64,000 nucleotides of DNA from positions 5,438,001 through 5,502,000 of the forward strand of contig NZ_CP069396.1 in NCBI RefSeq assembly GCF_016887565.1, in the 5' to 3' direction. Positions 13,505 through 25,212 of this stretch are shown one piece after another (within the stretch, counting starts at the first letter, position 1; each line of letters opens with the position of its first letter). The position numbers were made by a program, and so were the translations under genes. The notes beneath the pieces were generated by a model. That model saw only the letters and a program-made list of their open reading frames with translations. It had not been told where the DNA came from and did not search any database. This DNA is from Archangium violaceum (GTDB lineage Bacteria; Myxococcota; Myxococcia; Myxococcales; Myxococcaceae).

Positions 13505-14566
13505 ATGCGAGTGCTCCTCGTCGGTGACTATCCGCCACCGCATGGTGGCGTGGCGATCCACGTCCAGCAGCTCCACGGGTACCTGCGCGAGCGCGGGGTG
13601 GAGGCGGTGGTGCTGGACATCGGGAAGGGCGGCCGGCCGGCTCCGGACGTCATCCCCGTCCGCACCCCCACGCAGTACGGCAAGCGGCTCGCGGGCTTCC
13701 TGCGGGACGGGTGGACGGTGCACGTCCACACCAGCGGCAACAACCCGAAGTCCTGGATGCTCGCCGCCACCGCGGGGGTGAGGGCGCCTCGCTCGCAGCG
13801 GATCATCACGCTGCACTCGGGGCTGCTGCCGGACTACCTGGGCGCCTCCGTGTCGCGCCGGGCCTTCGCCCGGGTGGCCCTGGCCGGCTACTCGCGTGTG
13901 GTGGCGGTGTCCGAGGCGGTGCGCGAGGCGCTCCTGCGCTGCGGCATCCCCGAGAAGAAGGTCGTCGTGTATCCGGCCTTCTGCGGCTCGCAGGTGAAGC
14001 CGGGGGTGGAGACCCTGGAGATCCGCGAGGCGCGCCGCCGCCGCCGGACCCTGCTGGCCATGGCGCACCACCCCTCTCCCGTCTACGGCCGCCAGCTGAT
14101 GTTCCGCGCGCTGCGGATGCTCGCCAACGAGCTGCCCGGCGTGGGGCTCGCCGTCTTCGGACCCGGTACCCGCTCGGAGGAGTTCCTCCGCGATGCCCGC
14201 GAGTCCCAGGTCGAGCAGCACCTGGAGGACCTGGGCGAGCTGGAGCACTCGCGGGCGCTGGCGCTGATCGCCCGCTGCGATGCCTTCATCCGGCCCACCA
14301 CGCACGACGGGGATGCCATCTCCGTGCGAGAGGCGCTCGCGCTCGGCGTGCCGTGCGTGGCCAGCGACGTGTGCACGCGGCCACACGGGGCCTACACCTT
14401 CCGCGCGGGCAACGCGATGGACCTGGCGGACCAGGTGAAGCGCGCGCTCGCGAACGGGCCCGCGCAGGTGGTGTCACCGGACGCCGGTCCGGTGCTGTTC
14501 GAGCTGTACGGCGCTCTGGCGCAATCCACGATGGTTGGAGGAGGCGAGACACATGCGGCGCAGTGA
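13505..14566 (+). CDS. exoO: GT4-family glycosyltransferase (ExoO-like)
   Basis: A 353-aa GT-B fold enzyme. The N-terminal donor/acceptor loop VGDYPPPHGGVAIHV is typical of GT4, and the C-terminal nucleotide-sugar domain shows RCDAFIRPTTHDGDAISVREALALGVPCVAS (the EX7E-like signature). It should add a sugar to the lipid-linked repeat unit on the cytoplasmic face. It starts 18 bases after exoN and overlaps the next gene by 14 bases. The assignment to exoO relies on the order deacetylase, Wzx, acetyltransferase, GT, GT of the M. xanthus spore-coat genes. Confidence 0.8.
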   Translation: MRVLLVGDYPPPHGGVAIHVQQLHGYLRERGVEAVVLDIGKGGRPAPDVIPVRTPTQYGKRLAGFLRDGWTVHVHTSGNNPKSWMLAATAGVRAPRSQRIITLHSGLLPDYLGASVSRRAFARVALAGYSRVVAVSEAVREALLRCGIPEKKVVVYPAFCGSQVKPGVETLEIREARRRRRTLLAMAHHPSPVYGRQLMFRALRMLANELPGVGLAVFGPGTRSEEFLRDARESQVEQHLEDLGELEHSRALALIARCDAFIRPTTHDGDAISVREALALGVPCVASDVCTRPHGAYTFRAGNAMDLADQVKRALANGPAQVVSPDAGPVLFELYGALAQSTMVGGGETHAAQ

Positions 14567-15755
14567 GGAATTGGAGGTGGCCCGCCGGGCCCTTCGTGGC
14601 AGGGACCTGGTGGTGTTCTCCAACGACTGGGATGGGGACCCGCTGTCCAAGGTCCACATCATGCGGATCCTCTCCCGGGACAACCGTGTCCTCTGGGTGA
14701 ACAGCATCGGCAACCGGGCCCCGAAGGCCAACGCGCACGATCTGCAGCGCATCTGGAAGAAGCTGGCCTCGTTCACCGAGGGCATTCGCGAGGTGGAGCC
14801 GAACCTCTTCGTGCTCGCCCCGCTGGCCATTCCCTTCTACGGCTCGGAGGCGGTGCGCGCGGCGAACCGCGAGCTGCTGCGCGCCCAGGTGCTGCGCGCC
14901 ATGAAGTCGCTGCACTTCAAGCGGCCCATCTCCTGGTCGTTCCTGCCGGCCTCGGCGCCGGTGTCCGGGCGGCTGGGCGAGGAGTTCGTCGTCTACCACT
15001 GCGTGGACGAGTTCTCCGCCTTCAGCGACACCAACGGCCGGCACATCGCCGAGCTGGAGGAGAAGCTGATGCGCCGGGCGGACCTGGTCATCACCTCGGC
15101 GGAGCGGCTGCGGGAGAACAAGGCGCGCGTCAACCCGAACACGGTGCTGGTGCGCCACGGCGTGGACTTCAACCACTTCGTGAAGGCGTGCGATGCGTCC
15201 ACGCCGATTCCGGAGGACATCGCGAAGCTGCCTCGGCCCATCCTGGGCTTCTTCGGGCTGGTGGCGGACTGGGTGGACCTGGAGGCCATCGCCGCGGCGG
15301 CGAAGGCGCACCCCGAGGGCTCGGTGGTGGTGATCGGCAAGGTGGCGCCGGACGTGGATCCGTCGGTGCTCAAGTCCGAGCCCAACATCCACCTGCTGGG
15401 GCGCAAGCAGTACGCGGAGCTGCCCGGCTACTGCCGTGCCTTCGACGTGGCGCTCATGCCCTTCAAGGTGAACGAGCTCACGCTCAACGCCAACCCGCTC
15501 AAGGTGCGCGAGTACCTGGCGGCGGGCCTGCCCGTGGTGTCCTCGGACATCCCCGAGGTGCGCAAGGTGGGCCTGTGCAAGCTGGCGAAGGACACCCAGG
15601 ACTTCGTGCGGAAGATCGACGAGTGCCTCGCGGAGGGCGCTGGCCCCACCCGTGAGCGCGCCGAGCGCATCCGCCACGAGAGCTGGGAGGCCAAGGTGGA
15701 GGAGATCCGCGGCTTCGTGGGCGAGGCGATGCTCAAGGCCGGGCGCGGTCTGTAG
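14553..15755 (+). CDS. exoP: GT-B glycosyltransferase (ExoP-like)
   Basis: A 400-aa glycosyltransferase. The N-terminal half has VVFSNDWDGDPLSKVHIMRIL and VVYHCVDEFSAF, and the C-terminal Rossmann half has ILGFFGLVADWVDLEAIAAAA and NANPLKVREYLAAGLPVVSSDIPEV, the sugar-nucleotide binding region with the conserved Glu. The ATG at 14553 follows GGAGGAGG (14537-14544) and lies inside the end of exoO; a TTG six codons earlier is an unlikely start. It is the last gene of the exo run and converges with fimU, with only 17 bases between stops. In M. xanthus the corresponding gene (MXAN_3263) is needed for an intact spore coat. Confidence 0.8.
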   Translation: MRRSEELEVARRALRGRDLVVFSNDWDGDPLSKVHIMRILSRDNRVLWVNSIGNRAPKANAHDLQRIWKKLASFTEGIREVEPNLFVLAPLAIPFYGSEAVRAANRELLRAQVLRAMKSLHFKRPISWSFLPASAPVSGRLGEEFVVYHCVDEFSAFSDTNGRHIAELEEKLMRRADLVITSAERLRENKARVNPNTVLVRHGVDFNHFVKACDASTPIPEDIAKLPRPILGFFGLVADWVDLEAIAAAAKAHPEGSVVVIGKVAPDVDPSVLKSEPNIHLLGRKQYAELPGYCRAFDVALMPFKVNELTLNANPLKVREYLAAGLPVVSSDIPEVRKVGLCKLAKDTQDFVRKIDECLAEGAGPTRERAERIRHESWEAKVEEIRGFVGEAMLKAGRGL

Positions 15756-15772: not shown

Positions 15773-16396
15773 TCAGGGCCCCGTGCAGGCGGGGTCCGGA
15801 TGGCTCCCGGTGCAGTCGATCATCCGCATCGCGCCGGTGAGCCCGTCCACCTGGAGCAGGTGGTGCACCACACCCCCGCGCTCCTTGATGCGAAGGGGCC
15901 CCTGGGGCGGCGCCGCGGTCTTGTCGCAGTCCTTGGGGGAACCCACCGTACCGCGCTGGCGCGGCTGGGCGCTCCGGGCCAGCCAGCACAGCCCGTCCAG
16001 GGCGGAGATGTCCAACGTGTCGGGCACGGGAATCGGCTCGCCCACCGCGACACAGGTGCAGCCCCCGGTGCCACAGGCGTTCGCCTGACAGGCCGCGGAG
16101 GGGCAGTCGACGCCCCACTTGTCGTCCGGGTTCGTACACCCCAGCTGCTCCCAGCGGATGATGTGTCCCGGGCGGTCCGCGCGCGGGTGCACGGCCAGTC
16201 GCACGGGGTACTGCCCCTTGCGGGCGGAGGTGCGGGCCTGGATCGCCAGGATGGAGATCTCCCGGAGCCCATCGCGCTCGTTCTGCTTGAGCCGCACGTC
16301 GTCCATGTTCACCAGGGCGATGGAGGCGATCACTCCGATCACCGCGAGCGTCACGGCGATCTCCATCAGGGTCGTTCCCCTCTGGGTGCGCTTCAT
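15773..16396 (-). CDS. fimU: Minor pilin, FimU/GspH-type
   Basis: A 207-aa class III signal protein: short basic leader (MKRTQR) cut at G7, then TTLMEIAVTLAVIGVIASIALV with Glu at position +5, the hallmark of type IV pilin-like proteins. The soluble part has two Cys-rich stretches (CTNPDDKWGVDC, then CQANACGTGGCTC), likely disulfide-bonded. Minor pilins of this class join the priming complex at the pilus tip with PilY1. It is the last gene of the minus-strand operon pilX-tfcP-pilY1-pilV-pilW-fimU, and its ATG overlaps the pilW stop by four bases. Confidence 0.8.
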   Translation of the reverse strand: MKRTQRGTTLMEIAVTLAVIGVIASIALVNMDDVRLKQNERDGLREISILAIQARTSARKGQYPVRLAVHPRADRPGHIIRWEQLGCTNPDDKWGVDCPSAACQANACGTGGCTCVAVGEPIPVPDTLDISALDGLCWLARSAQPRQRGTVGSPKDCDKTAAPPQGPLRIKERGGVVHHLLQVDGLTGAMRMIDCTGSHPDPACTGP

Positions 16397-17682
16397 GGAA
16401 TCACCCCCGCGTAGGAGTAGTTGCGAGGCATGACCTCGACGGTGGCGGTGCGCCGCTTGTAGCCGTCCTGGGGGTTGCCGTCCGCATCCAGGACGAAATC
16501 GCCGCCGCTCTTCCTGGCCAGCGCGGGATCCGCCCGCGAGGTGCGAGTGGTCACCGTGAGCTCCACCATGCGCAACCTGCGCATCAGCGCGTCCCTCGCG
16601 GTGGGCTCGTCCGCGCTGGCCGTCCAGAGAGTGCCGCCGGGCATGGGCACCAGCGCGTTGCAGGTCGCGTCACACGAGTCGATCGCCGGACGGGCGGGAG
16701 CGGCGGTCGTATCGGGGAACCAGAGGACATTCGCGTCCAGCTCGGCGAGGTTGTCCTTCACCCCCAGCCGCGCCCGCAGCTGCTCGACGTCCCGGGACAG
16801 GGCCACCCAGGGGGCGGGGGGCAGGCCCGGCCTCACGTCCGAGGTCTGCTCGTGACGCTCGAGCACCGGCCCGCCGCTCTTCCAGTTGATGCGGAAGGAG
16901 ATTCCGCGCACGGGCATGACGAAGGCGCCCGCGGTGTCGTGCTGCCAGAAGTTGGTGTACTCGGTCGACGGGGTCGCGCCGGGCGCCGAGCACAGGTCTC
17001 CCACGGGCGGAGGATTGCCCGGCAGCCCCGGGACGATCGTCACCTGCCAATAGGGGATGGGCACGCTCGTCACCTCGTTGGCGGCCCGCACCTGCATGAT
17101 GCAGGCGGTCCGCGTGGCGGGCTTGACCACCATCACCAGCCGGTCCATCAGCGCGGCGGGGTTGGTGAGCATGCACAACGTGTCGCCGCTCCGGTACAGG
17201 GAGGGGGCGGGGGGCGGCGTCGGGCACGTGTCCAGCGGGAGCATGGGGATGGGTTGGCCCGCCGCGTCCTCCGCCTCGGTGTCCCAGGTCCACACCTGCA
17301 GGGCGTCGGAGGCCCGCGTGGCATAGGGGCCCGTGGGCAGGGCGAAGGACGTGTCCTCGGGAAAGAGGCCACTGCCATTGAAGGGCTCGCTCGCGCTGAC
17401 GGTGATGGCATAGCGCACGTCGGCGGCCCCACTCGGCCGGCTGCCGAAGACCAGGCGCGCGCTTCCCGCGCCGGTGCCCGCGCGCTGCAGGTCGACCACG
17501 AGCAGGTCTCGCACCGCGCGCATCGCGTTCTGCGCGCTCATCAGCGACTCCTCCAGCGTGCCGCGCCGCTGCAGCTCCGCGGCGCTCCACAGGGCCGCCG
17601 CGAGCACGATCAGCGAGATGCTGCTGGCCACCATCACCTCGAGGAGGGAGAAGCCTCCGTTTCCAGCCACTCGTTGCTTCAT
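16393..17682 (-). CDS. pilW: Minor pilin, PilW-type
   Basis: A 429-aa prepilin-like protein with leader cut after G10 (MKQRVAGNGG) and FSLLEVMVASSISLIVLAAALWSAA, with Glu at +5. The large C-terminal domain, long for a pilin, fits PilW, the largest of the minor pilins. A late segment (MRRLRMVELTVTTRTSRADP) is typical of PilW-like proteins. It contributes to the tip complex that starts pilus assembly. It overlaps pilV upstream and fimU downstream by four bases each. Confidence 0.82.
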   Translation of the reverse strand: MKQRVAGNGGFSLLEVMVASSISLIVLAAALWSAAELQRRGTLEESLMSAQNAMRAVRDLLVVDLQRAGTGAGSARLVFGSRPSGAADVRYAITVSASEPFNGSGLFPEDTSFALPTGPYATRASDALQVWTWDTEAEDAAGQPIPMLPLDTCPTPPPAPSLYRSGDTLCMLTNPAALMDRLVMVVKPATRTACIMQVRAANEVTSVPIPYWQVTIVPGLPGNPPPVGDLCSAPGATPSTEYTNFWQHDTAGAFVMPVRGISFRINWKSGGPVLERHEQTSDVRPGLPPAPWVALSRDVEQLRARLGVKDNLAELDANVLWFPDTTAAPARPAIDSCDATCNALVPMPGGTLWTASADEPTARDALMRRLRMVELTVTTRTSRADPALARKSGGDFVLDADGNPQDGYKRRTATVEVMPRNYSYAGVIP

Positions 17683-18209
17683 GGTCCCACCCGCGTCTGC
17701 AGGGCCACTGCCTGGAAGGAGTCCCCGCTCCCCTCGTCCTGCCAGCCCACCGTCACGCGCACGTTGACCGCGCGCCTGAGCGTCACGCCCTTCTCCGTGC
17801 GGTTGAGGACCGGGTCTCCCAACTCATTGCCCTCCAGGGGCGGGTCCACGTCGATGCTCACCCGGTACGGCCGCCGCACCTCCGGGTCTCCCGCCGCGGG
17901 CACCTGCAGGGTGGGAGCCCCGCTGGCGCTCCAGTAGACGGTCTCTTCCTTGTGATCCAGGGCCGCGATGGCGCTGCAGGGGTGGTCCGGATCGGCCACC
18001 GCGTCACACCCGATGCGGGTGACGCGCTCCAACCACCACTCGGCGATGGTGTACGCCTGCGCCTGGGCCAGGTTGCGGCGGTTGAGCTTGGTGACGGTGA
18101 TCACCGTCCCGGCCACCATGCCGATGCCCAGGATGAGCACCACCGCGGTCACCATGGACTCCAGGAGGGAGACCCCGCGGACGCTCCGGTGGCGGTGGTG
18201 CTTCATCAT
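17679..18209 (-). CDS. pilV: Minor pilin, PilV-type
   Basis: A 176-aa prepilin-like protein: basic His/Arg-rich leader (MMKHHRHRSVRG), then VSLLESMVTAVVLILGIGMVAGTVITV with Glu at +5, the PilV/GspI pattern. The start is one of two adjacent ATG codons (18209 or 18206), eleven bases after the pilY1 stop. The longer frame upstream overlaps pilY1 and is not needed. Its stop overlaps the pilW start. The protein should bridge PilY1 and other minor pilins at the pilus tip. Confidence 0.8.
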   Translation of the reverse strand: MMKHHRHRSVRGVSLLESMVTAVVLILGIGMVAGTVITVTKLNRRNLAQAQAYTIAEWWLERVTRIGCDAVADPDHPCSAIAALDHKEETVYWSASGAPTLQVPAAGDPEVRRPYRVSIDVDPPLEGNELGDPVLNRTEKGVTLRRAVNVRVTVGWQDEGSGDSFQAVALQTRVGP

Positions 18210-18220
18210 GGTTCGAGTCC

Positions 18221-21200
18221 TCACGGCTGCAGGCGCCCGCTCGCGCTCGCGTCCCAGAGGCGGATGCGCACCGGCCCGGAGTTGGTGGTCGCGGTCTGGT
18301 TGTTCCACTTGGCGGGGTCGCCCTTGACCATCACTTTTCCGTCCGCGGTCAGCATGATCAGGTGCTCGTCGTGTACCACCGGGGTGGACAGGCCATGGCC
18401 ACCCAGCGACGTCCCGGAGTTGGGCATCGCCGCGCCAGTGGCACTGGCGAAGGCGTAGAAGTTGCCGCTGTCCGTCGCGCTGAGCTCACAGGCGTTGGCC
18501 GCCTTGCCCACCGCGGTGGTGGTGTACACGCTGTCTCCGGCGATGGCCACACCACCCCAGACGAGCTGGCCCTCGCCCAGCTGCTGGGTCCACAGGTGGG
18601 TGGCGTCGATGCAGGTGGTGGCCGTGGGGTTGGCGTCCTCGTAGGCGAGCACGTAGCCGTGCGGGCGGGGGTTCGCCAGGTCGGCCGGCTCGTTGGAGAT
18701 GTCCGGGTTGTTGGCGGTGCCCAGGTACACGCGCACCACCTTGCCGGCGGCGCCGGCCTGCAGGCGCACCGAGATGCTCGAGTAGATGCCCTGGTGGTTG
18801 GCGTCCGAGCGGCCCTCGGCCGTCAGCTTCTCCTTCACGTCCGCCAGCTCGCACACCTTGAACGTCTCGCCGAGACCGCGCTCGGGATCCACCTGGGTGG
18901 TGCTGATGCGGAAGAGCTTGCCGCCCGTCGTGGCGGCATAGAGGAGATCGTACGAGCCGTCCTCGTTGGCATCCACCGCCGCGGGCTCACCGCCCACGCC
19001 CTCGCCCTGGGCGAGGGGCACCACGCCGGCCAGACGGGACGCGGCCTTGGTGCCCGCGACCTGGACCGGCTGGCCCGTCTTCATGTCCAGCAGGTACAGC
19101 GCACCGGCGGTGCCGGCATTGGGCACGTAGTCGGTGCCCACGACGGCCACCCACTTGCGGCCGCCCTGCGCTCCGAAGTCCATCCGGACGATGGGCGTGG
19201 AGTGACGCGAGCCGCGCGTATCCGGCACCAGGTCGGCGTCCAGGTCGGCGAAGGCGTCCTCCACGGTCATCGCGGTGACGGAGGTGGGCGCATCGCTCAC
19301 CCCGCTCATCGACACGGCGTCACTGGCCATGTCGAACTCCCACATGGGCTGCGGGTAGGACGGATGGGAGGGGTCGGTGATGTCCAGCGCGAACACGACG
19401 CTGAGGCTGGGGCCGGTGGGCGACACGAGCACCGTCTTGGCGCCCTCGGTGGGGCCGGGGCTGTTGCCGATGGTCCAGGCCGGCTGGGTGGAGGTGTTGC
19501 CGCCCGTGGCGACGTACGGGCCGAAGCCCAGGTCCACGTCCGCCACGGAGGGCGAGGCGTCCACCGTGGCGCGCTTGCCATTGCCCTGGCGCAGGTAGGA
19601 GTCCACGTAGTTGGGCAGCAGCTTGCGCGGCAGGTAGGCGAACAGCTCGCGCGCGTTGCCGTAGTTGCGGTTCTCGTTGCAGCCCTCGAAGTGGCCGCGC
19701 GCGTCACGCTCCACCGTGCACGGGTCGTCCTTCATGCGCAGGGCTCCGGACTGCACGCCGTGCAGGTAGCCCTGGATGGTGCCCACGTAGGCCACGGTGG
19801 AGCGCTGGCTCACCCGCGCGTCCGACAGGAAGTTGGAGGTGAACTTCGCCTGCTCGGTGCCCGTGACGCGCGTCCACCAGGGCGGGGTGGAGCCGCCGCC
19901 GATGATGGCCGGCGTGGACAGCTGGACGCCGCCCATGGGCCAGGTGCGCTTCTCGTTCGTGGAGGACGAGCCGTTGCGGCGCTCCCAGCCGTACAGCCAG
20001 TTGCGCAGCAGCGCGCGATCCTCGCTGTCGGGCGCGCCGCCGCTGTTGTCCAGGTCGCACACCCAGTGACCGCCGTTGGCCCCACCGCAGTTGGTCGACG
20101 AGAAGGCCTCGCCGCCGTTGCTGTCGAGCAGCACGTCCTTGAGCTCGGCCCGGGTGTTGTTGGGCCGCATGGTGATGAGCTTGCGCCAGCCGGTGGGCTC
20201 CTCGCTGCGCACGACCTCGCCGAGCTTGCGACCGCCGTCCCACAGCATCTCGCCGCTGGTGGCCGTCGGGGTCTCCGGCTTGTAGAGCTCCTTGAGGTAG
20301 AGGTGGCCGCGCTCGGACAGATCCAACCGGCCGTCCACCACGCGGGTGGAGGGCGGAGTCGCGGTGCTCTCGAACCAGGTGCGGCCGGGCGTCTCGTACG
20401 CCCCGTACAGGACGGTGTTGGCCACGGTGGAGACGGCCGCGCGCCCGTAGTCACCGGCCTTCATCGCCTTGTAGGACACGTTGATGTTGCGGATGGTGGG
20501 CTGGCAGGTGTCGTCCTTGCTGCGCATGATGGAGCGCCAGCACAGCTGCGAGCCGGTGAGGCTGCGCTGCAGGAAGTCCCGGATGGTCGCCGACGAGTCG
20601 CGCTGCGCGCCACTCGTCGGGGGCTCATCCAGCGGCACGTCCGTCCAGGTGGGGTACTCGTTGACCGACAGGGTGGGGTTGGTCGTGCCGCAGTTGGCCG
20701 TGCACACCTTGCAGTCGAGCGCGACCTGGTAGGTGATGCGCGGCCGATCCTCCGCGGGACGGGTCCGGCAGTGGGCCGGATTGGTGGAGCTGTAATAGGG
20801 CTCGTCCACCGCCCGGAACGTCACCTCGGTGATGGTGTAGTCCTGGGAGATGCTCGGGGACAGATCGCCCGAGACCACGGCCGAGCGCACCACGCCGCCG
20901 TTGGACTTGTGGATCATGAAGCTCACGTCGTTGAAGTCGCGGTCACCGCCGCCGGACAGGTCCTCGAAGCCGAGGATCCACCGGTACTTGTCGGTGGAGG
21001 GGGCGCCCACCAGGACGTGGGGCAGCACGCTGCGGCCGCTCGTCGTGTCGGCCTTCACGTAGGCCTTCTCGTGCGGCATGTTCAGATTGCGGTAGGCCGG
21101 CTGCGTCTGCAGGCGGTTGAGCGTGGCCTGGTCCAGCCAGCCCTCGAGCGACTCACCCGTCTGGTTGCAGGTCCCCGAACCATACGCGCATCCGATGTCG

Positions 21201-22444
21201 CGCTTGGCCACCACGGAGATGTTGTTGCCCGCCGCGTCACTCGCGGTGGAGGGGGCCAGGGCGTTCTGATCCATGTTCAGCAACGTCTTGGAGAAGAAGA
21301 CCACCGTGGGGCTGACGAGGTGGAGCTTGCAGGCGCCTCCTGGGGTGGTGGAGTCGAAGCTCAGGCAGGGATACACCTGCGGAGACGAGCCGCCCGGAGC
21401 GTGGTTGGGGCCGCCCCAGGACACCATGTAGAAGACGATCTCCTGGTCGCCCTCGATCTCTCCCAGGTTGACCGTGCGGTCGCGCTCCTCGTTGAGGGTG
21501 TTGTCCGGAGCGGTGGCCAGGGGCCGGCCATCCTGGTCGTAGGCGGAGACGTTGTAGTCGGGGATGCCGTTGAACTGGTCCGAGGTGTCATTCGCCGGCG
21601 TCATGCTGTTGTAGACGCTGGTGTCGCCATCGTCGTCGGAGTGGAGGAAGACGAGATGACCGATGCCCCGGCCTTTTTCAGTGCTCGTGGCGCCCGACCT
21701 CTTGTTCTTGTTGTCGAGCGGCTCCAGGAGGTTGGGGATGGTGGGGTAGAGCCCCTGATCGCTGAACTGGGTGCCGGAGCGGCCAGCCGAGGGCGCCTGG
21801 CCCACGGTGGCGACCGTGATGTTCCGGCTGGTCTGGCCAGGGCGGGCGTCCTTCAGGGAGACGGTCGAGTTGTACGTCGCGTTGCAGTCCTTGGCGGCCA
21901 GCTCCGGCTCGAAGAATGTCTTCCCATTGAAGGTGAAGGTCCGCGTCGGGCAGCGGCGGGTGGTGCCGCCGATGTAGTCGCGGGTCGTGGACATCGAGTA
22001 GAGGTCCTCGTGGAAGTCCGCGATGCCGTTGTTGTCGGTGTCCGCCAGCTTGTCGTCGCTGCTGTCGCCCGGGGTGCCGTTGACGTTGATGTAACCGCGG
22101 GCGACGAGGTCTTTGTAATAGAAGTAGCCGAGCGCGGCGGAGTTGCCGGCGGACTCGTACAGGTAGCTGACGCTCACCTGCTGGGTGAAGGGGAAGTAGA
22201 TGCGCTCGGTGTTGAGCACCTCGAGGTTGGTGTTCAACCGGATCGCGGGCGGGCTGTCGTTGGTGAGGGTGACGGACGTCCAGTCGAAGCCGGCCGTGGG
22301 GCTGAAGTCCGGCTGACGGTCCTGTCCCGTGGTGTCGTGGCAGAGGGCCACCATGGCCCCGCCACCACCGGTTCCACCAGTCTGGGCCGTGGCGGCCGAG
22401 GCGCACAGCAGCGCCACCATCAATGTCTTACGAGGCGCGTGCAT
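18221..22444 (-). CDS. pilY1: PilY1-type pilus tip adhesin, calcium-binding
   Basis: A 1407-aa exported protein with a signal peptide (residues 1-20). Near residue 150 is a DTDNNGIADFHED stretch like a thrombospondin-type-3/EF calcium loop. Around residues 490-520 is a DUF4114-like segment (GFEDLSGGGDRDFNDVSF), also acidic. The C-terminal part (about residues 880-1400) is the PilY1/PilC beta-propeller; its calcium loop is seen as DANEDGSYD near residue 1155. PilY1 sits at the pilus tip, primes assembly with minor pilins and works in adhesion. It starts two bases before the tfcP stop region ends, in effect abutting it. No von Willebrand domain was recognised. A 1386-aa opening on the opposite strand is a GC shadow. 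Confidence 0.9.
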   Translation of the reverse strand: MHAPRKTLMVALLCASAATAQTGGTGGGGAMVALCHDTTGQDRQPDFSPTAGFDWTSVTLTNDSPPAIRLNTNLEVLNTERIYFPFTQQVSVSYLYESAGNSAALGYFYYKDLVARGYINVNGTPGDSSDDKLADTDNNGIADFHEDLYSMSTTRDYIGGTTRRCPTRTFTFNGKTFFEPELAAKDCNATYNSTVSLKDARPGQTSRNITVATVGQAPSAGRSGTQFSDQGLYPTIPNLLEPLDNKNKRSGATSTEKGRGIGHLVFLHSDDDGDTSVYNSMTPANDTSDQFNGIPDYNVSAYDQDGRPLATAPDNTLNEERDRTVNLGEIEGDQEIVFYMVSWGGPNHAPGGSSPQVYPCLSFDSTTPGGACKLHLVSPTVVFFSKTLLNMDQNALAPSTASDAAGNNISVVAKRDIGCAYGSGTCNQTGESLEGWLDQATLNRLQTQPAYRNLNMPHEKAYVKADTTSGRSVLPHVLVGAPSTDKYRWILGFEDLSGGGDRDFNDVSFMIHKSNGGVVRSAVVSGDLSPSISQDYTITEVTFRAVDEPYYSSTNPAHCRTRPAEDRPRITYQVALDCKVCTANCGTTNPTLSVNEYPTWTDVPLDEPPTSGAQRDSSATIRDFLQRSLTGSQLCWRSIMRSKDDTCQPTIRNINVSYKAMKAGDYGRAAVSTVANTVLYGAYETPGRTWFESTATPPSTRVVDGRLDLSERGHLYLKELYKPETPTATSGEMLWDGGRKLGEVVRSEEPTGWRKLITMRPNNTRAELKDVLLDSNGGEAFSSTNCGGANGGHWVCDLDNSGGAPDSEDRALLRNWLYGWERRNGSSSTNEKRTWPMGGVQLSTPAIIGGGSTPPWWTRVTGTEQAKFTSNFLSDARVSQRSTVAYVGTIQGYLHGVQSGALRMKDDPCTVERDARGHFEGCNENRNYGNARELFAYLPRKLLPNYVDSYLRQGNGKRATVDASPSVADVDLGFGPYVATGGNTSTQPAWTIGNSPGPTEGAKTVLVSPTGPSLSVVFALDITDPSHPSYPQPMWEFDMASDAVSMSGVSDAPTSVTAMTVEDAFADLDADLVPDTRGSRHSTPIVRMDFGAQGGRKWVAVVGTDYVPNAGTAGALYLLDMKTGQPVQVAGTKAASRLAGVVPLAQGEGVGGEPAAVDANEDGSYDLLYAATTGGKLFRISTTQVDPERGLGETFKVCELADVKEKLTAEGRSDANHQGIYSSISVRLQAGAAGKVVRVYLGTANNPDISNEPADLANPRPHGYVLAYEDANPTATTCIDATHLWTQQLGEGQLVWGGVAIAGDSVYTTTAVGKAANACELSATDSGNFYAFASATGAAMPNSGTSLGGHGLSTPVVHDEHLIMLTADGKVMVKGDPAKWNNQTATTNSGPVRIRLWDASASGRLQP

Positions 22445-22445
22445 T

Positions 22446-22805
22446 TCAGTTCCTCTTGGGGGGGGTCTGCGCGCCGGGGGCCGGGGTGGCCGGCGTCTGG
22501 GCGCTGCGCAGGTAGGAGATGAGGTCGCTGACGTACTGAGGCTGCAGCTGACGCGGATCGCACTGCGTGTCCGCGCGCACCTTCCAGGGGTCCTTCACCC
22601 ACTTGCGTAGCTCGGTGCCGGAGTGGGTGCTCAGCCAGAGGGAGAGGTTGGCCGGGGCGGTGGCGTTCTTTCCGTCCGCACGGGCGGGCTCCGCCACGTG
22701 GCACTGCGCGCACGCTGCCTCGAAGGCCTTCTTGCCGAAATCGGCGTCGCCCGCGCTCGCCGGGAGGGCCAGCAGGAGCGGGAGGAGCAGGAAGGGTCGG
22801 TTCAT
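22446..22805 (-). CDS. tfcP: Small non-canonical cytochrome c (TfcP-like) in the pilus operon
   Basis: A 119-aa secreted protein: signal peptide residues 1-18 (MNRPFLLLPLLLALPASA), one haem site CAQCH at C32-H36, and a C-terminal helix (YVSDLISYLRS) typical of class I cytochrome c. There is no methionine after Met1, so the usual distal haem ligand is missing. Instead Cys82 (in ADTQCDPRQL) stands where it would be expected, which is the unusual His/Cys ligation described for M. xanthus TfcP, a cytochrome that helps PilY1 bind calcium. The tail is Pro/Ala-rich. The ATG at 22805 was chosen because it starts the signal peptide; the longer frame runs into pilX. One base separates its stop from the pilY1 start. 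Confidence 0.85.
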   Translation of the reverse strand: MNRPFLLLPLLLALPASAGDADFGKKAFEAACAQCHVAEPARADGKNATAPANLSLWLSTHSGTELRKWVKDPWKVRADTQCDPRQLQPQYVSDLISYLRSAQTPATPAPGAQTPPKRN

Positions 22806-22851
22806 CACGAGCCTCGGAATACCGGTGGGGGGGTGGGGGCGGGGGGGAACT

Positions 22852-23628
22852 TCAGAAGGTGGTGCCTTGGGCGATGTTGGGGGGCGACACGTCCAGCGAC
22901 GAGCCCGACGTCTTGTCCGAGCCGCCGAGCTTCTGGCCGCCGTAGCCGCTGGCCGCCTGCGACGACAACCCCGCGGCCACGAGGACGCGCACCACCGACC
23001 TCGCGAGCACCACGCCGCCCTTCCCCTGCACCTCGCCCATGGACACCAGCCAGACGGACTTGTTGGTATCATCGCGGCGACCGTCGTTCGGGTTGCTTGG
23101 GTCGTCCTTGTCGTCGTCGTCGTCGTGCACGAAGACGCGGTAGAAGACCGTGGACTGCTCGGGGAAGGAGACGTAGGGGCGGCCGTTCGGATCGCGCATC
23201 TCCCGCAGGGGCGTCGCGAAGCTGGAGTCCAGCGCCTGGCCCGTGCCCGACAGCAGGCTGTAGCGGGTGAGGGGGAGCACCTCGTACCAATGGGCGCCGT
23301 TGCCCGGGAAGTCGGGCTCATTCACCGCCCCGTCCAGGCCGTTGCCGCTCGAGTAGATGTCGCCCAGCTTGGCCATCACCGCGTTGAAGTTGGTGGCGTT
23401 CGCGCTGCTGCCCAGCAACGTGGTGAGCACCTCGCGCCCTTCCGCCAGACCCGCCTCGGCGGCGAAGAAGGCCTCGCGCGCACGCCGCTCACCGCCTTGC
23501 AGCTCGCTCTCCTGGCTGACGATGCGCAAGCTCACCAGCGTGGCCGCGGTCACCACCGCCAATGTCCCGAGAGCCACCAGCAACGTCATTCCACGCGGAT
23601 GTCGACGATGTAGGCGAACCTGTTTCAT
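22852..23628 (-). CDS. pilX: Minor pilin, PilX-type, with Asp-rich loop
   Basis: A 258-aa prepilin-like protein: leader MKQVRLHRRHPRG, then MTLLVALGTLAVVTAATLVSLRIVSQESE. As in several PilX proteins, the +5 Glu is replaced (here by Val). A helix with EARRAREAFFAAEAGLAEG follows, the PilX_N pattern. At about residues 165-190 is a dense acidic tract (HDDDDDKDDPSNPNDGRRDD) that looks able to bind calcium. It is the first gene of the pilus operon, with a promoter and operator candidate just upstream, and lies 46 bases before tfcP. Confidence 0.8.
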   Translation of the reverse strand: MKQVRLHRRHPRGMTLLVALGTLAVVTAATLVSLRIVSQESELQGGERRAREAFFAAEAGLAEGREVLTTLLGSSANATNFNAVMAKLGDIYSSGNGLDGAVNEPDFPGNGAHWYEVLPLTRYSLLSGTGQALDSSFATPLREMRDPNGRPYVSFPEQSTVFYRVFVHDDDDDKDDPSNPNDGRRDDTNKSVWLVSMGEVQGKGGVVLARSVVRVLVAAGLSSQAASGYGGQKLGGSDKTSGSSLDVSPPNIAQGTTF

Positions 23629-23654: not shown

Positions 23655-23695
23655 AACGGGATATTCGATCATCCCGTTCGTTTCCAGTATGTCAA
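23655..23695 (-). promoter_or_regulatory. Promoter of the pilX-fimU operon with overlapping inverted repeat
   Basis: On the minus strand TTGACA (23690-23695) is followed after 16 bases by GATGAT (23668-23673), a plausible housekeeping -35/-10 pair. AACGGGAT (23655-23662) and ATCCCGTT (23671-23678) form a perfect 8-base inverted repeat that covers the -10. A third copy, AAACGGGA at 23643-23650, is 11 bases from the AAACGGGA at 23654-23661, one helical turn. This reads as an operator for a dimeric regulator. Confidence 0.55.
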
Positions 23696-23841: not shown

Positions 23842-25212
23842 TCAGAGCATCTTGCCGGGGTTGAGGAGGCCGAGCGGATCGAGCGCGGACTTGATGGCGT
23901 GGTGGAGCCGCAGGGACTCGGGGCCGAGCTGAGCGGCGAGGAAGGGGCGCTTGAGGGCGCCGACCCCGTGCTCGCCGGTGATGGTGCCGCCCATGTCGAG
24001 CACCACGCGGAGGATGTCGTCGAAGGCCGCCTTGGCCCGCCCCACCGCGTCCGGATCGTTCCGGTCGAAGACGAGGGTGGGGTGCATGTTCCCATCGCCC
24101 GCGTGGCCGAACGTGCCGATGAGCACGCCGCGCCGCTCGGCGATGAGCTCGACCGCCGCGAGCAGCTCGGCGATGCGCGAGAGCGGCACGCCCACGTCAT
24201 CGAGCAGTGTCGCCCCCTGGCGCTCGAGCGCGGGAAAGGCGAGCCGGCGCGCCACGAGCAGCAGCTCGCCCTCGGCCTCGTCGGCGGAGTGCGCGACGAA
24301 GGTGGCCCCGGCGGCCTCGCAGGCGGCCACCATCCGCGTGCACTCCGCCACGCCCTGCTCACCCCCGGCATCGGAGCGCGCCAGCAGGAGCGCCGCGGAC
24401 TCGACGTCCAGACCCAGGGGCTTGAAGGACTCCACGGCGCGCACCGTGGTCCGGTCCATGAGCTCGAGCACGGAGGGGCGGGTGCTCGCCATGATCTCCG
24501 TGACGGCCGCGCCGGCCCCGACGAGCGTCGGGAACGAGGCGACGAGCGTCGTGGCCGGGGGAGGGCGCGGGCGCAGCCGCAGCGTGGCCTCGGTGACGAC
24601 GCCGAGCGTGCCCTCGGAGCCGACGAAGAGCCGGGTGAGATCATATCCGGCGACGTTCTTGACCGTGCGGCCACCGGTGCGCACGACGGAGCCATCCGCG
24701 AGCACGGCCTCCAGCCCGAGCACGGCATCCCCGGTCACGCCGTACTTCACGCAGCACAGACCGCCGGCATTGGTGGCGACGTTGCCGCCGATCGTCGAGA
24801 ACTCCCAGCTCGCGGGATCCGGCGCGTACCAGAGCCCGTGCTCCGCCGCGGCCGCCTTGAGCGCGCCGTTGAGCACGCCCGGCTGGACGACGGCGAGCAG
24901 GCCGCGCCGGTCGATCTCCAGGATGCGGTTCATCCGCGTGAGCGAGAGCACGATGCAGCCGTCCGTGGCGTTCGCGCCGCCCGACAACCCCGAGCCCGCT
25001 CCTCGGGCGACCACCGGCACGCGCAGGGCCGCCGCCACGCGCAGCACGGCCTGGACCTCGGCCGTCGAGGCCGGACGGACGAGGACCCCCGGGACACCCG
25101 CCGCGGCCCATCCAGCCTGGTCGTGGCGGTGCGCTTCGAGCACGTCGGGATCGGTGACGAGGCCCTCGGGGGGCAGGACGGACGCGAGCTCGCGGATCAG
25201 GTTCACGCTCAT
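23842..25212 (-). CDS. FAD-linked oxidase, GlcD/D-lactate dehydrogenase type
   Basis: A 456-aa flavoprotein of the PCMH/VAO family. The FAD-binding loop [14 protein letters not shown] is near residue 75, followed by the glycolate-oxidase-type segments [38 protein letters not shown] and, in the C-terminal cap domain, HAGDGNMHP and GEHGVGALK. Such enzymes oxidise a 2-hydroxy acid (glycolate or D-lactate) to the 2-oxo acid. It stands alone, without GlcE/GlcF partners, which favours a single-subunit dehydrogenase of the D-lactate or D-2-hydroxyglutarate kind. The substrate is not decided by sequence. It ends in a short intrinsic terminator. Confidence 0.88.

What the first reader, a model, noticed from the sequence alone, without database searches (positions are those of the whole stretch)
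15773..23628. Six-gene pilus-tip operon that includes a cytochrome c
pilX-tfcP-pilY1-pilV-pilW-fimU are on one strand, overlapping or nearly so. A haem protein between two pilus-tip proteins links redox or haem chemistry to pilus priming. M. xanthus has three minor-pilin/PilY1 clusters, and the one with TfcP is the match. Here the whole set is compact enough to suggest a single complex.
Basis: partly seen in the sequence, partly recalled or inferred. Interest (0 to 1): 0.75.

Follow-up and report, generated by a model that had tools for sequence, protein, structure and literature searches.

The report
Pilus-tip operon with helper cytochrome
This soil bacterium carries a known kind of gene set for building the tip of its gripping hairs, including a small haem protein thought to help the tip protein take up calcium, but its tip genes belong to a different branch than expected and its haem protein lacks a tail that is needed in the studied relative.

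Summary
In detail: pilX-tfcP-pilY1-pilV-pilW-fimU lie on the minus strand (23628-15773), nearly gapless. The 119-aa protein is a TfcP-type cytochrome c (CAQCH, then one further Cys, 82). The system is known from Myxococcus xanthus cluster_1, where TfcP is a periplasmic helper for calcium loading of PilY1 and is not in the pilus; "redox priming" and "single complex" are not supported.

New here: (1) PilY1 and, separately, the four minor pilins put this operon with M. xanthus cluster_2, not cluster_1 (support 98/98; 100/99; AU rejects cluster_1), although tfcP is said to mark pilY1.1-type clusters only. TfcP probably predates the split and was lost in cluster_2. (2) Its TfcP lacks the charged C-terminal part that M. 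xanthus TfcP needs, yet tfcP has the lowest dN/dS of the six genes. (3) Residues shared with cluster_1 but changed throughout the TfcP-less cluster_2 PilY1 concentrate in the DUF4114 calcium pocket; TfcP core divergence tracks that pocket, the C-terminal extension tracks the propeller. I propose that TfcP acts on the DUF4114 pocket: inference, testable in M. xanthus.

The parts
23668..23695 (-). promoter-like site (TTGACA-16-GATGAT) before pilX
   Evidence: consensus scan, 1 found, shuffles mean 0.3; not evidence of function
22852..23628 (-). pilX, minor pilin, 258 aa
   Evidence: PilX_N below cut-off, E 0.021; relatives upstream of tfcP or pilY1 in 75 of 80 loci
22446..22805 (-). tfcP, c-type cytochrome, 119 aa, hydrophobic N terminus, no charged C-terminal extension
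22698..22712 (-). haem attachment motif CAQCH (residues 32-36)
   Evidence: CxxCH in 52 of 52
22560..22562 (-). Cys82, predicted distal haem ligand
   Evidence: only Cys after CxxCH; exactly one such Cys in 52 of 52, 44-64 residues after the haem His
18221..22444 (-). pilY1, tip adhesin, 1407 aa
   Evidence: PF13448; 3hx6 by profile
20885..21322 (-). PilY1 residues 375-520: DUF4114 region with 18 of the 24 residues shared with C1 and changed in all C2
20927..20944 (-). DRDFND, putative DUF4114 calcium pocket (PilY1 501-506)
   Evidence: intact in 5 of 5 A and 46 of 46 C1 rows, D503T in 23 of 23 C2 rows; pocket proposed in PMC9109919
18947..18973 (-). DANEDGSYD, EF-hand-like motif of the propeller (PilY1 1158-1166)
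17679..18209 (-). pilV, minor pilin (alternative GTG start at 18224)
16393..17682 (-). pilW, minor pilin, 429 aa
   Evidence: N_methyl over cut-off
15773..16396 (-). fimU, minor pilin, 207 aa
   Evidence: IV_pilin_GFxxxE over cut-off

Best explanation
One transcript probably makes four minor pilins, the tip adhesin PilY1 and TfcP. The pilins and PilY1 form the priming and tip complex of type IVa pili. TfcP is a periplasmic cytochrome c whose haem (predicted His36/Cys82 ligation) is structural. It binds new PilY1 transiently and helps it load calcium before assembly, so that pili form at low calcium (supported by experiments on M. xanthus cluster_1, inferred here). Here the pilins and PilY1 descend from the cluster_2 side, which kept tfcP in this lineage and lost it in Myxococcus-type cluster_2. 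The window TfcP works without the charged C-terminal extension, so the cytochrome core is the essential client-binding part. The likeliest client site of the core is the DUF4114 calcium pocket of PilY1 (inferred). The confidence given is for identity, descent and helper role; for the client site alone it is about 0.3.
For: Layout. TfcP features: CxxCH and one later Cys in 52 of 52, PF00034, fold. M. xanthus function: PMC8833165. Descent: careful PilY1 tree of 37 chosen of 80 rows, window clade A with the PilY1.2 clade 98/98, A held with PilY1.1 rejected (AU 1.9e-64 with 16 C1 rows, 3.0e-6 with 14); quick tree of all 80 rows agrees, 99; concatenated minor pilins, 37 rows, 100/99. In the 80-row tree a 44-row PilY1.1 clade (100) holds only rows with tfcP directly before pilY1, the 5-row clade A likewise, and the 23-row PilY1.2 clade (100) holds none, all with at least 2.5 kb upstream; early-branching G090 has it too. 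Selection: tfcP dN/dS 0.116 (NG86) / 0.045 (YN00) against 0.23-0.42 / 0.07-0.16 for the other five genes, one pair of genomes. Sites: 18 of 24 C2-changed residues in DUF4114, scan permutation p 5e-5, control contrasts 2 of 14 and 0 of 10. Co-divergence in 46 C1 operons: TfcP core best with PilY1 386-525, extension best with 1191-1330.
Against: TfcP loss and DUF4114 change fall on one branch (one event), so their link may be chance or a shift in ligand. M. xanthus PilY1.1 D498A (window D506 by a one-residue numbering offset, inferred) was expressed and still let pili form, in lower amounts (PMC9109919 section 10 read), so that pocket is not strictly needed when TfcP is present. Core co-divergence with DUF4114 is modest and other windows come close (1-140, 246-385). 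The careful tree leaves L155, L156 and two outgroup rows unresolved and C1 as one clade unsupported (49/54), and the root rests on two distant rows of odd composition. TfcP is too short to place by tree: a C1 TfcP clade apart from A is neither shown nor rejected (p 0.34), so transfer of tfcP into clade A is not excluded. Nothing was measured in this organism.
Confidence: 0.7

Rival explanations
1. Plain ortholog of M. xanthus cluster_1, nothing different.
For: Same gene content with tfcP directly before pilY1; a 2026 survey states that tfcP upstream of pilY1 is conserved for the pilY1.1-type cluster only.
Against: PilY1 and minor pilins each group with cluster_2; AU rejects cluster_1. TfcP lacks the extension.
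Confidence: 0.12
2. A cluster_2-side operon that lost tfcP like its relatives and regained it by transfer or recombination from a cluster_1 operon.
For: The TfcP tree does not resolve the A branch relative to C1; the operon is patchy (found in 2 of 6 genomes of the genus and 3 of 4 of g6, with capped candidates per genome), and the two genes that flank it in the window are not neighbours in 8 of 10 genomes searched.
Against: A TfcPs form their own long branch (99/97), 29-35% identical to the 21 C1 TfcPs aligned; G090, outside C1 and C2 in the quick tree, has tfcP in the same place, so ancestral presence is simpler.
Confidence: 0.15
3. The cytochrome carries electrons to or from the pilus tip, or senses redox state.
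For: It is a c-type cytochrome in a pilus operon.
Against: Cys distal ligand, very low potential, similar growth of the mutant and absence from pili in M. xanthus; its authors do not rule out signalling. The Cys is kept here.
Confidence: 0.04
4. TfcP is decaying in this lineage: extension lost first, gene next, as in cluster_2.
For: Extension lost in 5 of 5 A genomes, in the clade next to the TfcP-less clade.
Against: Lowest dN/dS of the six genes; haem and distal Cys motifs invariant in 6 A-type proteins.
Confidence: 0.05

Closest known systems
M. xanthus cluster_1 (four minor pilins, PilY1.1, TfcP), PMC8833165
   Same: gene content, tfcP immediately upstream of pilY1, tight spacing, CxxCH and distal-Cys TfcP, DUF4114 PilY1 with EF-hand-like motif
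   Different: PilY1 and minor pilins belong to the cluster_2 side; TfcP is 119 aa without the charged extension (M. xanthus TfcP lacking 118-153 was non-functional); tfcP-pilY1 gap of +1 nt where C1 operons overlap by 1 or 4
M. xanthus cluster_2 (PilY1.2)
   Same: closest by descent of PilY1 and of the four minor pilins
   Different: the 23-row PilY1.2 clade has no tfcP and carries D503T, D485N and a deleted 418-426 loop in DUF4114
P. aeruginosa PilY1 (3hx6)
   Same: propeller part by profile
   Different: N-terminal VWA domain in place of DUF4114 (stated in PMC9109919)

Membership tests
TfcP (T4aP formation cytochrome c) | single CxxCH in a cytochrome c domain | tested here: met
   CAQCH 32-36, PF00034 28.2 bits
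TfcP (T4aP formation cytochrome c) | Cys in place of distal Met/His | tested here: met
   Cys82 aligned with the M. xanthus AM003 Cys, invariant in 27 aligned rows; one Cys after CxxCH in 52 of 52. Ligation itself not measured
TfcP (T4aP formation cytochrome c) | encoded beside pilY1 and minor pilins | tested here: met
TfcP (T4aP formation cytochrome c) | type I signal peptide | tested here: inconclusive
   hydrophobic N terminus ending ALPASA seen in the sequence; no predictor was run
TfcP (T4aP formation cytochrome c) | charged C-terminal extension (the paper says TfcP and most of its homologs have it, so not strictly defining) | tested here: not met
   tail after Cys82 37 aa with 2 charged residues beyond its residue 24, against 49-67 aa and 8-19 in the 45 of 46 C1 rows that the script measured
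TfcP (T4aP formation cytochrome c) | covalent haem, about -310 mV, PilY1 stabilisation at low calcium | not testable with these tools
   needs protein and mutants
PilY1.1 / cluster_1 clade | PilY1 groups with PilY1.1 | tested here: not met
   AU p 1.9e-64 (16 C1 rows) / 3.0e-6 (14)
PilY1.2 / cluster_2 clade | PilY1 within the PilY1.2 clade | tested here: not met
   next to it (98/98), not inside; C2 itself 100/100
PilY1.2 / cluster_2 clade | no tfcP; DUF4114 pocket lacking an Asp | tested here: not met
   tfcP present; DRDFND intact
PilY1 / PilC tip adhesins | C-terminal propeller | tested here: met
   profile of 22 sequences hits 3hx6, E 4.7e-7; PF05567 not reached by the window protein itself

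The most novel reading that the evidence does not exclude
TfcP grips PilY1 at two places: its cytochrome core at the N-terminal DUF4114 calcium pocket, its charged C-terminal extension at the propeller beside the EF-hand-like site. The need for TfcP comes from the acidic DUF4114 pocket, which cannot fold unaided at low calcium; cluster_2 PilY1 escaped by swapping acidic residues (D485N, D503T) and then lost tfcP. The Archangium/Cystobacter TfcP is a natural core-only form serving an intact pocket.
Probability: 0.25. Interest if true: 0.68.

Novelty: new variant of a known kind. Interest (0 to 1): 0.48.

Why it matters
How a haem protein that itself shows no calcium binding makes an adhesin bind calcium was left open by the 2022 study. 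This operon separates variables that are tied together in M. xanthus: TfcP without PilY1.1 ancestry and without the charged extension. It yields a site-specific prediction (DUF4114 pocket for the core, propeller for the extension) that a few M. xanthus strains could settle, and it qualifies the published rule that tfcP goes with pilY1.1-type clusters only.

Tried and rejected
A scan of named genomes with the window TfcP alone confirmed no relative, so a PilY1 alignment was used as bait (36 loci). A protein search with TfcP gave 5 hits, all without the extension.

A second cytochrome as TfcP substitute: 22 of 23 C2 loci (the other lacks the sequence) have a small cytochrome on the same strand after fimU2 (CxxCH 122-194 nt past its stop); the M. 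xanthus AM003 one scores PF13442 and PF00034, and its distal Met is my reading of the sequence. Rejected as a substitute: one homolog was found in each of 6 genomes searched, far from the operon in the two Archangium and two g6 genomes, and about 1.6 kb from tfcP in G068. It looks like a neighbour.

Acidic residues in PilX (HDDDDDKDD...) were considered as a calcium feature; 9 loci looked at differ in extent and position; dropped. The propeller EF-hand-like motif as TfcP's client: all 22 of 23 C2 rows shown keep it without TfcP, and it ends in E instead of D in 3 of 5 A and some C1 rows, so it does not track TfcP.

Rows dropped before counting: of the matches I did not use G108:C56 (a stop inside), G067 and G059 (in pieces) and the many that cover only the N-terminal half or less. 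C1 and C2 were labelled by neighbour gene (tfcP, or downstream cytochrome plus L098), not by an outside list; that the labels fall into clades is the tree's result. Genome searches score a capped number of candidates per genome (up to 31, 6), so 'not found' in a genome is not proof of absence.

The first co-divergence test against EF windows used 3 of the 4 that hold the motif; one search repeats it with all 4 and the difference shrinks (0.17 to 0.11; above 0 in 96% of resamples). The propeller window was chosen. In one search the expression missed the distal Cys context in L126 and L082, which still show the third Cys at +59 and +52.
Full report
WHAT IS THERE. The window lies in a single-contig genome of 13.2 Mb. 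Its genus holds G045, whose contig of 269,683 bases has the length listed for Archangium lipolyticum proteins, so I call the host Archangium-like (inference). Six genes run on the minus strand from 23628 to 15773: pilX, a 119-aa cytochrome, pilY1, pilV, pilW, fimU. Spacing is 46 nt, 1 nt, then 4-nt overlaps (for pilY1-pilV this depends on the start chosen). The only promoter-like site in the region is just upstream of pilX. Downstream the next gene is convergent (glycosyltransferase, 14535-15755). Co-transcription is likely, not shown.

WHAT TFCP DOES IN M. XANTHUS (PMC8833165). Cluster_1 is an operon by RT-PCR. TfcP is periplasmic, not detected in purified pili, not polar, has His/Cys-ligated haem at about -312 mV, showed no calcium binding, and is needed for PilY1.1 stability unless about 1 mM calcium is added. 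Changes to the haem Cys pair or to Cys91, and removal of residues 118-153, abolish function. So a redox link and a shared complex are not supported; a transient helper role is what the authors propose.

THE EXPECTED BRANCH IS WRONG. I collected 80 DUF4114-type PilY1 genes with flanks: the window's and 79 from stretches L078-L156, most of them found with PilY1 profile A2 in 96 genomes of the family. A TfcP lies directly upstream in 52; 22 others have none but a different cytochrome downstream; 6 have neither call: three start at contig ends, two are distant forms, one lacks downstream sequence. M. xanthus AM003 is among them (contigs of 50,491 and 165,335 bases, named). I labelled C1 (46 rows with tfcP outside the window's group and G090; holds M. 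xanthus PilY1.1), C2 (23 rows; holds M. xanthus PilY1.2) and A (the window, the A. lipolyticum contig and three g6 genomes, Cystobacter by the 1,618,303-base contig). In a quick tree of all 80, 44 of the C1 rows form one clade with no row lacking tfcP, the 23 C2 rows form one clade with none having it, and A lies with C2 (99). A careful tree of 37 chosen rows with a mixture model gives A with C2 at 98/98. Holding A with C1 costs 73-86 log units and is rejected (AU 1.9e-64 with 16 C1 rows, 3.0e-6 with 14); C2 plus the 14 core C1 rows apart from A is rejected too (1.1e-5). I had seen the quick tree before these tests, but A-with-C1 is what the literature rule implies. Weak points: L155, L156, L082 and L083 are unresolved, C1 as one group has 49/54 support, and the root rests on two distant rows. 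The four minor pilins, concatenated and without PilY1, give A with C2 at 100/99. So both parts of the operon are on the cluster_2 side.

CONSEQUENCE. PMC13190605 (abstract, section 4 part 1, section 7, section 9 part 1 and further passages seen) states that tfcP upstream of pilY1 is conserved for the pilY1.1-type cluster only. Clade A breaks that rule: cluster_2 descent with tfcP, in 5 of 5 rows. G090, outside C1 and C2 in the quick tree, also has tfcP before pilY1. The simplest history is tfcP in the ancestor and one loss in C2. The alternative, tfcP moved into A later, is not excluded because TfcP trees are weak. I could not see that paper's figures or supplements, so I cannot say how its authors placed Cystobacter.

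THE MISSING EXTENSION. C1 TfcPs have 49-67 residues after the distal Cys with 8-19 charged residues in the end part (45 of 46 rows measured); A has 30-40 with 0-3. Six A-type proteins lack it. The early branches G090 and G124 have charged tails, and G049 a charged tail cut by the contig end (read by eye), so A most likely lost it. In M. xanthus that part is needed for TfcP to accumulate and function. Yet tfcP is the most constrained of the six genes between the window and G045 (dN/dS 0.116 NG86, 0.045 YN00; others 0.23-0.42 and 0.07-0.16; one pair, a short gene). So it is probably in use. PMC8833165 already says that most homologs carry the extension, so forms without it may have been seen.

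WHERE TFCP MAY ACT. I asked which PilY1 residues are shared by A and C1 but absent from all 23 C2. There are 24, of 289 eligible; 18 lie in residues 375-520, the DUF4114 region, which holds 50 of the eligible ones. The region was picked after seeing the list, so the fairer test is the scan: the best 125-residue window holds 15 of 21 events (a deletion counted once), none of 20,000 permutations reached it (largest 11). Two control contrasts give 2 of 14 and 0 of 10 in the region. The changes include D503T and D485N (23 of 23), F504Y, and loss of a two-Cys loop at 418-426. PMC9109919 (section 10 and passages read) had proposed a calcium pocket in DUF4114, conserved in PilY1.1 and lacking an Asp in PilY1.2. 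The window keeps DRDFND. The propeller EF-hand-like motif, in contrast, is kept in the 22 of 23 C2 rows shown.

A second line uses C1 alone (46 operons) and does not depend on the C2 event: TfcP divergence, corrected for PilW divergence, correlates best with PilY1 386-525 (0.62; the overlapping 421-560 equals it, 246-385 and 1-140 reach 0.60) and less with the four windows that hold the EF motif (0.24-0.52). Split in two, the TfcP core peaks at 386-525 (0.63; in 145 of 200 resamples the top window is one of the three there), while the charged extension peaks at 1191-1330 (0.54; 0 of 200 there). The split holds under four sets of controls and is not matched by any of 200 random core subsets of equal size. 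These are correlations among related sequences, with windows chosen after looking and a low-complexity extension; they are leads.

PUTTING IT TOGETHER. Shown by sequence: gene set, TfcP-type cytochrome, cluster_2 descent, missing extension, constraint on tfcP, DUF4114 pattern. Known elsewhere: helper role in calcium loading. Inferred: the same role here, with the core acting at the DUF4114 pocket. Against the last step: D498A (window D506 by a one-residue offset inferred from a public M. xanthus sequence) still allows some pili in M. xanthus with TfcP present; this fits a model in which removing the acidic side chain removes the need for help, but it also fits no role at all. The decisive strain is D498A without tfcP.

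NOVELTY. Searches of open-access text for TfcP with PilY1, TfcP with Myxococcus, PilY1.2 with cytochrome c, DUF4114 with calcium, and minor pilin / cytochrome c / Myxococcus / cluster_2 listed 2, 2, 2, 5 and 17 papers. I read parts of PMC8833165, PMC13190605 and PMC9109919 and two passages of PMC7541494; the others I saw as listings only. In what I read, none reports tfcP on the cluster_2 side or ties TfcP to DUF4114. Subscription papers and supplements were not seen. The system is known; the variant and the inference are the new part.

Noticed in passing
L037:14744-15070 (M. xanthus AM003) and the other cluster_2 loci: A small cytochrome c sits on the same strand just after fimU2 in the 22 of 23 C2 loci with sequence there; one homolog was found in each of 6 genomes searched, elsewhere in the window's genome (G000:C1:11114878).
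   Followed up: yes
G058:C1:876379-882571 and others: Open frames of about 600-900 aa match only PilY1 residues 38-648 (the DUF4114 half), three in tandem in G058; the window genome has a 107-aa frame of this kind at C1:3364056.
   Followed up: no
L086:1410-4461 (G124): pilX and tfcP are followed, with a 4-nt overlap, by a repetitive Cys-rich ORF of over 600 aa, open at the contig end, instead of a usual PilY1 start.
   Followed up: no
G000:C1:9533481-9539177: A second PilY1-like gene (PF05567) with prepilin-type N termini nearby in the same genome; further groups of prepilin-type N termini at about 1463-1465 kb, 3965-3968 kb and 10770 kb, which may be secretion pseudopilins.
   Followed up: no
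window 14535-15755 and 23842-25212: The genes flanking the operon were found in 10 of 10 Archangium/g6 genomes but lie far apart or on different contigs in the 8 other than G000 and G045, so the operon sits at a rearrangement point.
   Followed up: partly
G056, G062, G069, G070, G095, G111, G120: These seven genomes each carry two tfcP-pilY1 clusters (side by side in G120, L096), so cluster_1 has multiplied further in some lineages.
   Followed up: no
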